From Solirubrobacterales bacterium (lineage in GTDB: Bacteria; Actinomycetota; Thermoleophilia; Solirubrobacterales; Solirubrobacteraceae), in contig JAFAYV010000036.1 in assembly GCA_019240115.1 (NCBI GenBank), positions 1-44,658 on the forward strand: 44,658 bases of DNA. The letters run 5' to 3'. The notes under the pieces were generated by a model. The model made no database searches and was not told the DNA's origin. It saw only the letters and a list, made by a program, of their open reading frames with translations. Positions 27,966-44,223 of this stretch are shown in pieces. The stretch's first letter is position 1. The number at the start of each line of letters is the position of its first letter. The position numbers were made by a program, and so were the translations under genes.

Positions 27966-28205
27966 CTACTCGGAGTCGCCGAGGCTGCGCAGCGCGGCGT
28001 CGACCTCTTCGCGGGCGTCCTTGGGGTCGGCCTCGCTCGAGCGCTCCTGCTGGATCTCGAGGTAGACCTCCTTGCGGAAGACCGGAACGTCGCGCGGGGC
28101 CTGGATGCCGATACGGACCTTCTCGCCCATGATCGCCAGCACCGACACCTCGATGTCGTCGCCGATCATGATGCTCTGGTTGGACTTGCGCGTCAGTACC
28201 AGCAT
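27966..28205 (-). CDS. csrA: carbon storage regulator (mRNA-binding)
   Basis: A 79-aa post-transcriptional regulator that binds GGA motifs in RNA hairpins, often at ribosome sites. The sequence is canonical: [39 protein letters not shown], and [10 protein letters not shown] with the RNA-contact Arg region. The C-terminal 25 residues are an acidic tail longer than in enterobacteria. The ATG at 28205 has GGAGG six to seven bases upstream, itself a possible CsrA site. csrA normally lies by fliW and flagellar genes; none is in this window. A promoter is visible at 28276-28305. A candidate RNA partner is at 42076-42335. Confidence 0.95.
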
Positions 28206-41006: not shown

Positions 41007-41288
41007 ATGAGACTGCTCTACAAGCCCCTCGCGATCATCGCGGCGCTGATCTCCGCACGGATCGGCAAGTCGCTGTTCGAGAGCATCTGGTCGCGGATCG
41101 ACCGGGAGCCCCCGCCCGAGCCCGGCAGCGGCGAGGGCAGCATGACGAAGGTCGTAGCCGGTCAGGCGCTGCAGGCCGGGGTGATGGCGGCCACCGCCGC
41201 CTGGGTGGATCGCTGGTTTGCGCGGGGCTTTCACCACACGATCGGCGTGTGGCCGAAGAAGCCGCCCGCGCCCGAGGATCAGGACTGA
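41007..41288 (+). CDS. DUF4235-family small membrane protein
   Basis: A 93-aa protein matching the DUF4235 pattern: LLYKPLAIIAALISARIGKS at the start, a central polar part with Pro/Glu, and a second amphipathic helix (AGVMAATAAWVDRWFARGFH). Two weak membrane helices. Function unknown in the family. The ATG at 41007 is the start of the conserved part; an upstream ATG would add Arg/Pro-rich residues. Its end overlaps the convergent thioesterase gene by 10 bp. Confidence 0.75.
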   Translation: MRLLYKPLAIIAALISARIGKSLFESIWSRIDREPPPEPGSGEGSMTKVVAGQALQAGVMAATAAWVDRWFARGFHHTIGVWPKKPPAPEDQD

Positions 41289-41716
41289 GCCTCGGCCGCG
41301 TCGGGCCTGAGCCATGCCGACAGACTGTCGCGCGCCCACGCGGGAATCGCCAGCTTCGTCGAGCTGGCGGCCTCGACGAACACGTAGCGCATGTCGACGT
41401 GGCAGAGCGGCGCGCCGTCGGGGTCGCGCCGAAACGCGAACGCCATGCGCAGGCTCGTCGTCCCCATGTGGGTGATCAGCGTCTCGATCGCCACCACCTC
41501 GTCGAACCGGGCCGCCGCCAGGTAGCGCACCCGCGCCTCCGCAACGACGATGTCGGCCCCGCGGTCGAGCATCACCTGGTAGCCCCCGAACGCCGCCCGC
41601 CACATCTCGGTCAGGGTGTGGTCGACGTAGGCGAGGTAGTTGGCGTTGAACACGACTCCCTGCGCGTCGCACTCGGAGTAGCGCACGCGCATCCGGTGCA
41701 CGAACGGCTCAGCCAT
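41279..41716 (-). CDS. acyl-CoA thioesterase, hotdog fold (YbgC/4HBT type)
   Basis: A 145-aa enzyme that hydrolyses acyl-CoA thioesters. The active-site text is RYSECDAQGVVFNANYLAYV with the catalytic Asp17, as in 4-hydroxybenzoyl-CoA thioesterase and YbgC. GTTSLRMAFAFRR and DMRYVFVEA complete the sheet. The exact acyl group is unknown. The ATG at 41716 lies inside the end of the upstream gene (8-bp overlap), so the two are coupled. Confidence 0.88.
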   Translation of the reverse strand: MAEPFVHRMRVRYSECDAQGVVFNANYLAYVDHTLTEMWRAAFGGYQVMLDRGADIVVAEARVRYLAAARFDEVVAIETLITHMGTTSLRMAFAFRRDPDGAPLCHVDMRYVFVEAASSTKLAIPAWARDSLSAWLRPDAAEAQS

Positions 41717-42047
41717 CGGCCCGGAGGATGAACCCGCGCTCGGTCAGCGCGGCGACCTGGTCCTCGAAGGCCGCGAAGTCGCGGCGTGCCAGCGCGTCGA
41801 TCGGGCGCCCCCGGGGGCCGGCGGCGCGCACCCAGCGGCGCAGCACCGTCCCGCCGACCCGCGCGTCGGCCTCGTCGACGAGCGCGAGCAGGATCGGGAG
41901 CTCGGGACGATGCTCGAGCCGGCCCGAGAGCACGGTCAGCGGATCCGCATCGAGCACCGCGCAGAGCTCGTCCTCGGTCAGGCCGAGGCGCTCGAGCAGG
42001 CGCGATGCGTCCGCGCCCCGGGAGTTCACGCGCTCCGGGTCGATCAT
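41709..42047 (-). CDS. DUF2384-like (MbcA/ParS/Xre-type) protein
   Basis: A 112-aa helical protein. The N-terminal half looks like a divergent Xre helix-turn-helix (LLERLGLTEDELCAVLDAD). The C-terminal half fits the DUF2384 toxin-binding pattern (ILLALVDEADARVGGTVLRR, then GRPIDALARRDFAAFED). Such proteins are antitoxins of RES/MbcT toxins, but no RES toxin is adjacent; the partner here is a thioesterase gene that overlaps by 8 bp. The call rests on pattern only. The ATG at 42047 borders the hairpin-rich region. Confidence 0.5.
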   Translation of the reverse strand: MIDPERVNSRGADASRLLERLGLTEDELCAVLDADPLTVLSGRLEHRPELPILLALVDEADARVGGTVLRRWVRAAGPRGRPIDALARRDFAAFEDQVAALTERGFILRADG

Positions 42048-42075
42048 GGCCCCGACATTCTCGCGCTCCGTGGCA

Positions 42076-42335
42076 CAGGGCCCGTCCGGAGGAGAGAGGA
42101 GACGGGCCCTGCGGTGGGGGTTCTCCCACGCTGCGCGGACACCAAACTCCCCCGCTCAAGATTGACGGACCGACCGCACATTTCGCCTCCGGCCGCGAAA
42201 CTTCTCGCAGGAATCGGAGTTTCCATAACGGGGCGCTCGCATTTGGAGGGTCCGCCCAGGATGCCCGGGCGGACCCTCCAGCCACCTGCGCCCCCATGAC
42301 AGGGCCCGCCCCCGAGGAGGGAAAGACGGGCCCTG
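42076..42335. ncRNA. candidate structured RNA with GGA-loop hairpins
   Basis: The 461-bp space between two divergent genes contains three strong hairpins and one weak one. Stem 1: 42076-42086 / 42101-42111 (11 bp), loop CGGAGGAGAGAGGA. Weak stem: 42197-42202 / 42218-42223 (6 bp), loop with GCAGGAAT. Stem 2: 42245-42257 / 42267-42279 (13 bp), loop AGGATGCCC. Stem 3: 42300-42308 / 42327-42335 (9 bp), loop with GAGGAGGGA. Stems 1 and 3 share CAGGGCCCG. Read on the plus strand each loop offers GGA, the core of CsrA sites. On the minus strand the loops are CU-rich and could pair with ribosome sites. Neither flanking gene needs a terminator here. Strand and ends are not established. Confidence 0.45.
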
Positions 42336-42387
42336 CCGAGGCTCCCCTAGCCCAACACCGTCCTGTAACGCTCGGCGGGCCGCGAAC

Positions 42388-42422
42388 TTGCGCAAACCCT
42401 GCGCACGAGCGAGGTCTGCGCA
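42388..42422. promoter_or_regulatory. three TGCGCA sites upstream of the gene at 42509
   Basis: TTGCGCAA (42388-42395), TGCGCA (42400-42405) and TGCGCA (42417-42422) lie 11 and 17 bp apart centre to centre. They are self-complementary and could be repeated protein sites. Confidence 0.35.
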
Positions 42423-42508
42423 ACTTTGGCGAGAAGTGGCGCGTTCTGTTGAGTGACGGCAGGCGAGACCGGTGGACGCCGGCCTCGGGGCACTGCCGGG
42501 CGACCACA

Positions 42509-42751
42509 ATGGACGAGATCCCCTTGGGCACGATGGTGCAGGTGCTCGCCGACTTCGATCGGTTCGGCGGGGCCAGCCTCGGCCTGATCGCCTGGGAGCT
42601 CTTCGTCCCCGAGGCCGCGGTGGCGCCCGCCTGGAGCGCGGCGGTCGCCGGCGGCCTGGTCGCCGAGGCCGGCCACGACCCGACCTACGACGAGCGGCTG
42701 TGGCGGCTGACCGCGAGCGGGTGGGCGCGACTGCACGAACGTCAGGGCTGA
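42509..42751 (+). CDS. small winged-helix-like protein
   Basis: An 80-aa protein. The order of helices and the late LWRLTASGWARLHER suggest a compact winged helix like those in DUF-type or MarR-like fragments (VLADFDRFGGASLGLIAWEL is the first part). I do not recognise a named family. The ATG at 42509 is the first start that gives this fold; longer frames run through the hairpin region. No ribosome site is visible. Confidence 0.55.
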   Translation: MDEIPLGTMVQVLADFDRFGGASLGLIAWELFVPEAAVAPAWSAAVAGGLVAEAGHDPTYDERLWRLTASGWARLHERQG

Positions 42752-42869
42752 CGGCCCCAGTCGCGCCGAAACGTCCGCGCGCGGACCGGATGCTTAGGTT
42801 GTTGCCGGACCGGGCATTACGCTGCCACGTGGCCAGTTCGTGTCATCTCTCACGAAAGGCAGGTCCGCA

Positions 42870-43025
42870 TTGATCACCCTGGGCATCATCCTGCTCATCA
42901 TCGGCTTCATCGCGAAGGTCGCAATCATCTGGACGATCGGGATCATCCTGCTCGTCGTCGGGCTGATCCTCGTCGCGATGGGCATGTTGGGTCGGGCCGT
43001 CGGCGGTCGACGCCACTACTTCTAG
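42870..43025 (+). CDS. DUF6131-like small hydrophobic protein
   Basis: A 51-aa protein with two membrane helices: ITLGIILLIIGFIAKVAIIW and IGIILLVVGLILVAMGML, ending in GRAVGGRRHYF, the family's typical C-terminus. Such peptides are common and abundant in actinobacteria with unknown function. The TTG at 42870 has AGGCAGG six bases upstream and begins exactly as relatives do; a GTG at 42840 would add ten polar residues. Confidence 0.78.
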   Translation: MITLGIILLIIGFIAKVAIIWTIGIILLVVGLILVAMGMLGRAVGGRRHYF

Positions 43026-43078
43026 CGGCCCACGCAATCGCGCAGGCCGCTGCGCCGTTGTATCGGCACGGGGGCTGA

Positions 43079-43116
43079 GACGAGGCGATTTCCTGTGAAC
43101 CGCCGACCGCCTCGTC
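43079..43116. terminator. hairpin between convergent DUF6131-like and prs genes
   Basis: GACGAGGCG (43079-43087) pairs perfectly with CGCCTCGTC (43108-43116), loop of 20 nt. It likely ends the plus-strand gene. Confidence 0.5.
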
Positions 43117-43129
43117 AGGCCCTCGGCCA

Positions 43130-43146
43130 GCCCCGCTGAGCGGGGC
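43130..43146 (-). terminator. terminator of glmU-prs
   Basis: GCCCCGC and GCGGGGC pair around TGA, starting 9 bases after the prs stop codon. Confidence 0.6.
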
Positions 43147-43155
43147 CGCCGCCGC

Positions 43156-44223
43156 TCAGAAGAGCTGGTTCTCGCCGTTGAAGACGTCGCTGACCGAGCC
43201 GTCGGTGAAGATCTGGCGGATCGAGTTGGTCAGGAGGTCGGCGCAGGAGAGGACGCGGACGTTCTCGGGCGCGCCCGGGGGCAGCGGGATCGTGTCGGTC
43301 ACGACGACCTGCTCGAAGCCCGCGGCGGCGAGGTTCGCCCACGCGTCGCCCGAGAAGTTGCCGTGGGTGGCGGCGGCGTAGATGCGCCGGGCGCCGGCGT
43401 CGCGGACGGCCCGGGCGGCGGCGGCCAGCGTGCCGGCGGTCCCGATCATGTCGTCGACGAGCAGCGCGGTCTTGTCGCGCACGTCGCCGATGACGTAGCT
43501 GATCTCGGCGACCTGCTGGGCGGGGCGCTCTTTGTTGAGGATCGCGAGGTCGGCGCCGATCTTGGCGGCGAAGTTCTTGTTCAGCTTGACGCGGCCGACG
43601 TCGGGGGAGACGACGACGAGGTCCTCGAGCCCGAGATCGGCGAAGTACTGGGTGAGGATGAACAGCGCGGTCATGTGGTCGCAGGGCTTGGAGAAGAAGC
43701 CCTGGATCTGGCCGGAGTGCAGGTCCATGGTGAGGATACGATCGATCCCGGCCGCCTCGAGCATCCGCGCCACGAGGCGGGCGCTGATCGGCTCGCGCGG
43801 GGCCGACTTCTTGTCCTGGCGGGAGTAGCCGAACCACGGGGTGACCGCGATGACGCGGTGGGCCGAGCCGCCGACGGCGGCGTCGACCATCTCGACGAGC
43901 TCCATCAGCGAGTCGTTGGGGTTCATCCCCTCCTGGACGTTGGCGCACGTCGGCTGCACGATGAACACGTCGGAGCCGCGGACCGACTCCTCGAAGCGGC
44001 AGTAGACCTCGCCGTTGGCGAAGGTCTTGCGCTCCACGCCGCTGAGGTCGACACCGAGCTTGGCCGCGATCCGTCCCGCGAGCGCGGGGTTGGCGCGGCC
44101 GCTGACGAGCATGAGCCGCTTGTCGTAGTCGCGGCGCAGGACGGTGGCCGACTGACGGGTCTCGACGAGGCTCACCTCGTCGCCGAGTGTACGTCGCGCC
44201 GGCGACGACTCGGTGAAGGTCAC
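43156..44223 (-). CDS. prs: ribose-phosphate pyrophosphokinase
   Basis: A 355-aa enzyme that makes PRPP from ribose 5-phosphate and ATP for nucleotide, His and Trp synthesis. Family text: [38 protein letters not shown] (ATP loop), [31 protein letters not shown] (flexible catalytic loop region) and [13 protein letters not shown] (PRPP loop). It is about 35 residues longer than usual at the N-terminus; an ATG at 44112 would give normal length, but the GTG at 44223 overlaps the glmU TGA (GTGA) and fits coupling. Confidence 0.95.

What the first reader, a model, noticed from the sequence alone, without database searches (positions are those of the whole stretch)
42048..42508. Candidate CsrA-titrating or regulatory RNA between divergent genes
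Three strong hairpins and one weak one have loops CGGAGGAGAGAGGA, GCAGGAAT-containing, AGGATGCCC and GAGGAGGGA-containing. GGA in an exposed loop is the CsrA recognition element, and CCAGGATG in stem 2 is close to the known best site. Stems 1 and 3 share their arms, as expected for a repeated module. The flanking genes are divergent and need no terminators here. CsrB-like RNAs are known from proteobacteria; to my knowledge none is described for this group. The other reading, on the minus strand, gives CU-rich loops complementary to Shine-Dalgarno sequences.
Basis: partly seen in the sequence, partly recalled or inferred. Interest (0 to 1): 0.75.

Follow-up and report, generated by a model that had tools for sequence, protein, structure and literature searches.

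The report
Hairpin cluster with anti-Shine-Dalgarno loops
A gap between two genes of a GC-rich bacterium holds three unusually strong hairpins that look less like a sponge for the regulator CsrA than like a small or leader RNA, read from the other strand, whose loops could cover ribosome-binding sites; no relative searched has it, so this remains a candidate.

Summary
The hairpins are real: H1 42074-42113, H2 42244-42280, H3 42298-42337, plus a weaker H4 42380-42432. The region folds better than all shuffles on both strands (z -3.6 plus, -4.8 minus). The CsrB-like reading is not supported: GGA is not enriched (13 against 12 in shuffles), only H1 and partly H3 expose it, stems are 11-17 bp where CsrA prefers short ones, and no DNA relative was found in 60 related genomes. 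csrA itself lies in this window; FliW was not found.

The minus strand fits better. There H1 and H3 are matching 14-bp hairpins with CU-rich loops (CCUCUCUCCUCC, UUCCCUCCUCGG). Anti-Shine-Dalgarno cores in loops exceed all 150 shuffles, and G.U pairs occur in all four stems where the plus strand has A.C mismatches. In most relatives the downstream gene directly follows prs; here about 1.1 kb intervenes.

Best reading: a lineage-specific minus-strand leader or small RNA that masks Shine-Dalgarno sequences, in the style of 6C, CcsR, AbcR and LhrC (0.4). U-less terminators or insulators are the main rival. No promoter motif, transcript or conservation supports it. Elsewhere in the genome I found a three-copy hairpin RNA family, two copies with CU-rich loops.

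The parts
42074..42113 (-). Hairpin H1: 14 bp on minus (two G.U), loop CCUCUCUCCUCC with anti-SD core; on plus 11 bp with loop CGGAGGAGAGAGGA
42244..42280 (-). Hairpin H2: 17 bp on minus with CAU loop; on plus 14 bp plus an A.C mismatch; outer pairs extend it to about 42228-42298
42298..42337 (-). Hairpin H3: second copy of the H1 stem, 14 bp on minus (three G.U), loop UUCCCUCCUCGG with anti-SD core (an inner 3-bp extension is also predicted)
42380..42432 (-). Weaker hairpin H4 (TTGCGCA / TGCGCAA arms), better paired on minus
42044..42181 (-). Possible 45-codon leader ORF with GGAGG site, overlapping the 112-aa gene start by ATGA and containing H1; codon usage atypical, may be chance
   Evidence: read directly from the sequence; not tested
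41709..42047 (-). 112-aa gene of unknown family, conserved in relatives, usually directly after prs
41279..41716 (-). Thioesterase-like gene following the 112-aa gene
42509..42751 (+). 80-aa ORF with a few relatives in the genus; divergent neighbour
42870..43025 (+). 51-aa hydrophobic ORF, DUF6131-type
43156..44223 (-). prs (ribose-phosphate pyrophosphokinase), ancestral upstream neighbour of the 112-aa gene
27966..28205 (-). csrA, 79 aa, the only csrA match in the genome

Best explanation
The region 42048-42340 is transcribed from the minus strand, as the leader of the 112-aa/thioesterase operon and/or as a separate small RNA. Two copies of one long hairpin (H1, H3) hold up CU-rich 12-nt loops with the anti-Shine-Dalgarno core CUCCUC, with an even stronger hairpin (H2) between them as protection or as an end signal. 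The loops would pair with GGAGG-type ribosome-binding sites, in trans on other mRNAs or in cis on the leader, and so lower translation. Shown: the hairpins, the repeated stem, the better minus-strand pairing, the loop composition and the gene context. Inferred: transcription, strand, pairing with targets and the effect.
For: Minus folds are stronger for every hairpin. A.C mismatches of the plus strand are G.U pairs on minus in all four stems. H1 and H3 keep the stem through a C-G to G-C swap and a U-A to U-G change. Anti-SD cores: 6 against 1.7, and 2 in hairpin loops against 0.04, none of 150 shuffles reaching either; 0.8-1.0 unpaired at the best sites in H1 and H3. The 112-aa gene has lost its usual place directly behind prs, so it probably needs a promoter of its own, and H1 lies only about 27 nt before its start. 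The same genome holds a three-copy hairpin RNA family, two copies with CU-rich loops.
Against: No transcript data. No TANNNT -10 element on either strand. No DNA relative in 60 genomes and no comparable hairpins at the syntenic site, so no covariation across species. Only two copies, and shuffling the two rows reaches the same score in half of cases. Part of the strand preference follows from base composition (minus has more G and T). Polar loops on strong hairpins are not enriched genome-wide. A leaderless transcript of the 112-aa gene would not include H1.
Confidence: 0.4

Rival explanations
1. The hairpins are U-less transcription terminators or insulators, possibly brought in with the extra 1.1 kb; they stop read-through on either strand, and their loop sequence does not matter.
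For: Long perfect GC-rich hairpins without a T tract sit at gene ends in this genome. Hairpin clusters without poly-U are reported as terminators (PMC8355165). Hairpins in a cluster would insulate the 112-aa gene from antisense read-through.
Against: The adjacent genes are divergent, so no annotated gene ends here. Two long CU-rich loops on a repeated stem, with anti-SD cores above all shuffles, are not needed for termination.
Confidence: 0.3
2. The hairpins are palindromic DNA (protein-binding sites, or leftovers of a rearrangement) with no RNA function; H1 and H3 resemble each other through local duplication.
For: Region absent from relatives, located in a lineage-specific stretch between prs and the 112-aa gene; no promoter-like elements.
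Against: The stem is kept through a compensatory swap between H1 and H3, and G.U pairs, which have no meaning in DNA, lie consistently on one strand. The arms are not dispersed in the genome.
Confidence: 0.2
3. A plus-strand RNA that titrates CsrA through GGA in its loops, like CsrB.
For: csrA is in the genome and in this window, FliW was not found, and GGA in hairpin loops is 3 against a mean of 0.5 (2 of 150 shuffles reach it).
Against: GGA count 13 against 12 expected; only about four are well exposed. E. coli CsrB has 22 GGA, and most SELEX ligands have four or fewer contiguous pairs (PMC7652899); here stems are 11-14 bp. Pairing is poorer on plus. Relatives with csrA lack the region.
Confidence: 0.05

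Closest known systems
6C / B11 small RNA of Actinobacteria (Rfam RF01066)
   Same: two hairpins whose C-rich loops pair with ribosome-binding sites (PMC10470900)
   Different: window region scores 19.8 bits against a gathering score of 47; loops CU-mixed, not runs of C; the two hairpins are about 190 nt apart with another hairpin between
CcsR / cuckoo RNAs (Rfam RF02791, conserved CCUCCUCCC motif)
   Same: hairpin loops with CCUCC-type anti-SD motifs, several copies
   Different: no match in the window up to E 5; known from alphaproteobacteria (own knowledge); the C28 locus elsewhere in this genome gives a sub-threshold match, 22.5 bits against 65.3
AbcR of rhizobia and LhrC of Listeria
   Same: CU-rich anti-SD motifs in unpaired regions, repeated within one RNA (PMC7143759; PMC4132741)
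   Different: no sequence relation tested or seen; stems here far longer
CsrB / CsrC
   Same: repeated hairpins, GGA in some loops on plus
   Different: GGA at background number, long stems, poorer pairing on plus
U-less intrinsic terminators
   Same: long perfect GC-rich stems without T tract, as at gene ends in this genome
   Different: not behind a gene; two long CU-rich loops on a repeated stem

Membership tests
CsrB/CsrC family | many repeated GGA sites (22 in E. coli CsrB) | tested here: not met
   13 GGA against 12 in shuffles; reference number from PMC7652899
CsrB/CsrC family | GGA exposed in hairpin loops or single strands | tested here: inconclusive
   three in H1 and one in H3 are well exposed, the H2 site only one third; loop count reached by 2 of 150 shuffles
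CsrB/CsrC family | CsrA present in the organism | tested here: met
   csrA at 27966-28205, Pfam PF02599
CsrB/CsrC family | RNA binds CsrA | not testable with these tools
   needs gel shift or pull-down
6C RNA (RF01066) | score above Rfam gathering threshold | tested here: not met
   19.8 bits against 47; none over threshold in 61 genomes
CcsR / cuckoo RNAs | match to the Rfam model | tested here: not met
   no match in 41900-42700 up to E 5
anti-Shine-Dalgarno-loop RNAs (functional class) | CU-rich anti-SD core exposed in a hairpin loop | tested here: met
   minus strand H1 and H3
anti-Shine-Dalgarno-loop RNAs (functional class) | transcribed, and pairs with target ribosome-binding sites | not testable with these tools
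   no RNA data; no promoter-like element found
intrinsic terminator | hairpin shortly downstream of a stop codon, or followed by a U tract | tested here: not met
   neighbouring genes are divergent; no T tract; U-less terminators of unannotated RNAs remain possible

The most novel reading that the evidence does not exclude
This genome uses a set of anti-Shine-Dalgarno hairpin RNAs of its own: the window locus with two matching CU-loop hairpins, and a separate three-locus family (contigs C28, C44, C68) behind a GGTTnGTTTCCAAC palindrome. That would be a riboregulator class not described for this group, distinct from 6C and CcsR.
Probability: 0.25. Interest if true: 0.6.

Novelty: new member of a known kind. 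Interest (0 to 1): 0.35.

Why it matters
If transcribed, it would be an anti-Shine-Dalgarno RNA or leader that arose within one lineage, seen next to genomes in which the ancestral gene order is still intact, in a group for which my few literature searches showed no small-RNA work. It also shows that GGA-in-loop sites found by eye in GC-rich hairpins can be the shadow of CU-rich loops on the other strand.

Tried and rejected
CsrB-like reading: rejected as the main one. Rfam membership: none at gathering threshold in this region; weak 6C, microRNA and snoRNA hits are chance level. Dispersed repeat or mobile palindrome: the arms occur at one other, unlike place only. Phage or plasmid DNA: no phage match, and on plasmids only the DUF6131 ORF matches. 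A covariance model of H1/H3 in 40 relatives: only weak hits, none with a matching CU loop on inspection. Syntenic sites in relatives: no comparable hairpins (the first version, ignored orientation and is discarded). Genome-wide excess of polar loops on strong hairpins: not significant. A reversed-sequence control keeps palindromes and is not a fair control, so it was dropped. The 146-genome search scored only three candidates per genome and says little about the hairpin part; one search is the better test.

Full report
Observation. The window is a whole contig (G000:C87) of a 4.03-Mb, 99-contig genome; the window is 72% GC. Between a 112-aa gene on minus (start 42047) and an 80-aa ORF on plus (start 42509) lie three strong hairpins, H1, H2 and H3, and a weaker fourth, H4. 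The 461 bases fold better than all 100 dinucleotide shuffles on either strand, z -3.58 on plus and -4.75 on minus. H1 and H3 have the same arms, found at only one other place in the genome, in an unlike hairpin.

Gene context. In 17 of the 25 relatives' loci fetched, prs ends within about 155 nt (mostly under 110) of where the match to the 112-aa protein begins, in the order glmU, prs, 112-aa gene, often followed by a thioesterase. Here about 1.1 kb separates them, holding two ORFs on the opposite strand: an 80-aa protein with few relatives and a 51-aa DUF6131-type protein common elsewhere in the group. Upstream of the 112-aa gene in the relatives there are no comparable hairpins, and the 461-base region has no DNA match in 60 related genomes. 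A covariance model of H1/H3 gives only weak matches in 40 relatives. The feature is therefore specific to this lineage as far as can be seen, and conservation cannot be used to prove function. One search covered 146 genomes of the family but scored only three candidates per genome, so it adds little for the hairpin part.

CsrA. The genome has one csrA match, in this same window at 27966-28205, and 55 of 61 genomes searched have one. FliW, the protein antagonist of CsrA, was not found in this genome, though several relatives have it. So what controls CsrA here is an open question. But the region is a poor CsrB: GGA occurs 13 times against 12 in shuffles; three lie in predicted hairpin loops against a mean of 0.5 (2 of 150 shuffles reach it); only those of H1 and one of H3 are well exposed. 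CsrB of E. [quoted passage not shown] Relatives that have csrA lack the region.

Strand. On the minus strand each of the four hairpins is more stable. H2 becomes a 17-bp stem with a CAU loop. H1 and H3 become two 14-bp stems with 12-nt loops, CCUCUCUCCUCC and UUCCCUCCUCGG. In all four hairpins, positions that are A.C mismatches on plus are G.U pairs on minus. The two copies differ in the stem by a C-G to G-C swap and a U-A to U-G change, the latter a pair only on minus. This is two sequences and about five independent positions, and the minus strand has more G and T to begin with, so it is suggestive, not proof. The anti-Shine-Dalgarno cores CCTCC/CTCCTC occur six times on minus against 1.7, and twice in hairpin loops against 0.04, with none of 150 shuffles reaching either; the best sites are 0.8 to 1.0 unpaired in H1 and H3.

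Mechanism. H1 lies only about 27 nt before the start codon of the 112-aa gene, and the opposing genes separate that gene from prs, so a transcript of it that is not leaderless would probably include H1 (inference). The most likely function is then pairing of the loops with ribosome-binding sites, in trans or in cis. Loops of this type act that way in 6C/B11 (PMC10470900) and LhrC (PMC4132741), and are proposed to in AbcR (PMC7143759). A 45-codon leader ORF (42181-42044, minus) that overlaps the gene start by ATGA, with a CCGGAGG site matching CCUCCGG at H1, is a possible cis target, but its codon usage looks atypical and it may be chance. Against the whole idea: no TANNNT -10 element on either strand, no U-tract terminator, no Rfam family.

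Main rival. This genome has long perfect GC-rich hairpins without a T tract at gene ends, so terminators of this type appear to exist here, and clusters of hairpins without poly-U have been reported as terminators (PMC8355165). The loops are what that rival does not explain. But one strongly polar loop on a strong hairpin is not rare: 3 of 50 hairpins of at least 11 bp in 1.27 Mb, against 2.5 expected. The case rests on two such loops on one repeated stem.

A second find. Reading 1.27 Mb of the genome in stretches for hairpins with CU-rich loops turned up loci on C28 and C44, and a pattern search added a third on C68. All have the palindrome GGTTnGTTTCCAAC (two on C68), followed further downstream by a 13-15 bp GC-rich hairpin whose stem shows two compensatory changes among the three. 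Two have 14-nt CU-rich loops (ACCCTCCTCCTCAG, TTGTCCCTTCCTCT); C68 has TTCATT there but a CU-rich stretch just before. The C28 copy gives a sub-threshold match to CcsR1, 22.5 bits against 65.3. The exact palindrome was found once each in two of 60 relatives, without such hairpins. This looks like a real, lineage-specific RNA family and makes CU-loop regulation in this organism more plausible, but the window locus lacks the palindrome and is not shown to be related to it.

Verdict. Real and unusual hairpins; CsrB-like reading not supported; minus-strand anti-Shine-Dalgarno RNA or leader the best guess at 0.4; U-less terminators close behind.

Noticed in passing
L105 9583-9701 (G000:C28), L121 1749-1879 (G000:C44), L162/L163 (G000:C68, upstream part at 61069-61125): Three-locus noncoding family in the same genome: palindrome GGTTnGTTTCCAAC (two copies on C68), then a 13-15 bp GC-rich hairpin with compensatory changes, two of the three with 14-nt CU-rich loops; C28 matches CcsR1 below threshold.
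   Followed up: partly
27966-28205: csrA is present, and in 55 of 61 genomes searched, while FliW was not found in this genome and in most of the relatives searched; what controls CsrA there is open.
   Followed up: partly
42048-43155: About 1.1 kb with two opposing small ORFs separates prs from the 112-aa gene that directly follows it in most relatives' loci fetched.
   Followed up: yes
L043 757-837 (G025:C57): In a same-genus genome, a very long perfect hairpin with a run-of-C loop, then a second hairpin and a T tract; sub-threshold match to 6C, 29.8 bits.
   Followed up: partly
L045 1505-1573 (G035:C1): In another genus of the family, two adjacent hairpins with CU-rich loops (one stem GGCCCGTC/GACGGGCC), sub-threshold match to 6C, 30.2 bits.
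   Followed up: partly
L094, L095: Two metagenome-assembled genomes titled Bifidobacterium breve carry the 112-aa gene at 60% identity; the titles look wrong.
   Followed up: no
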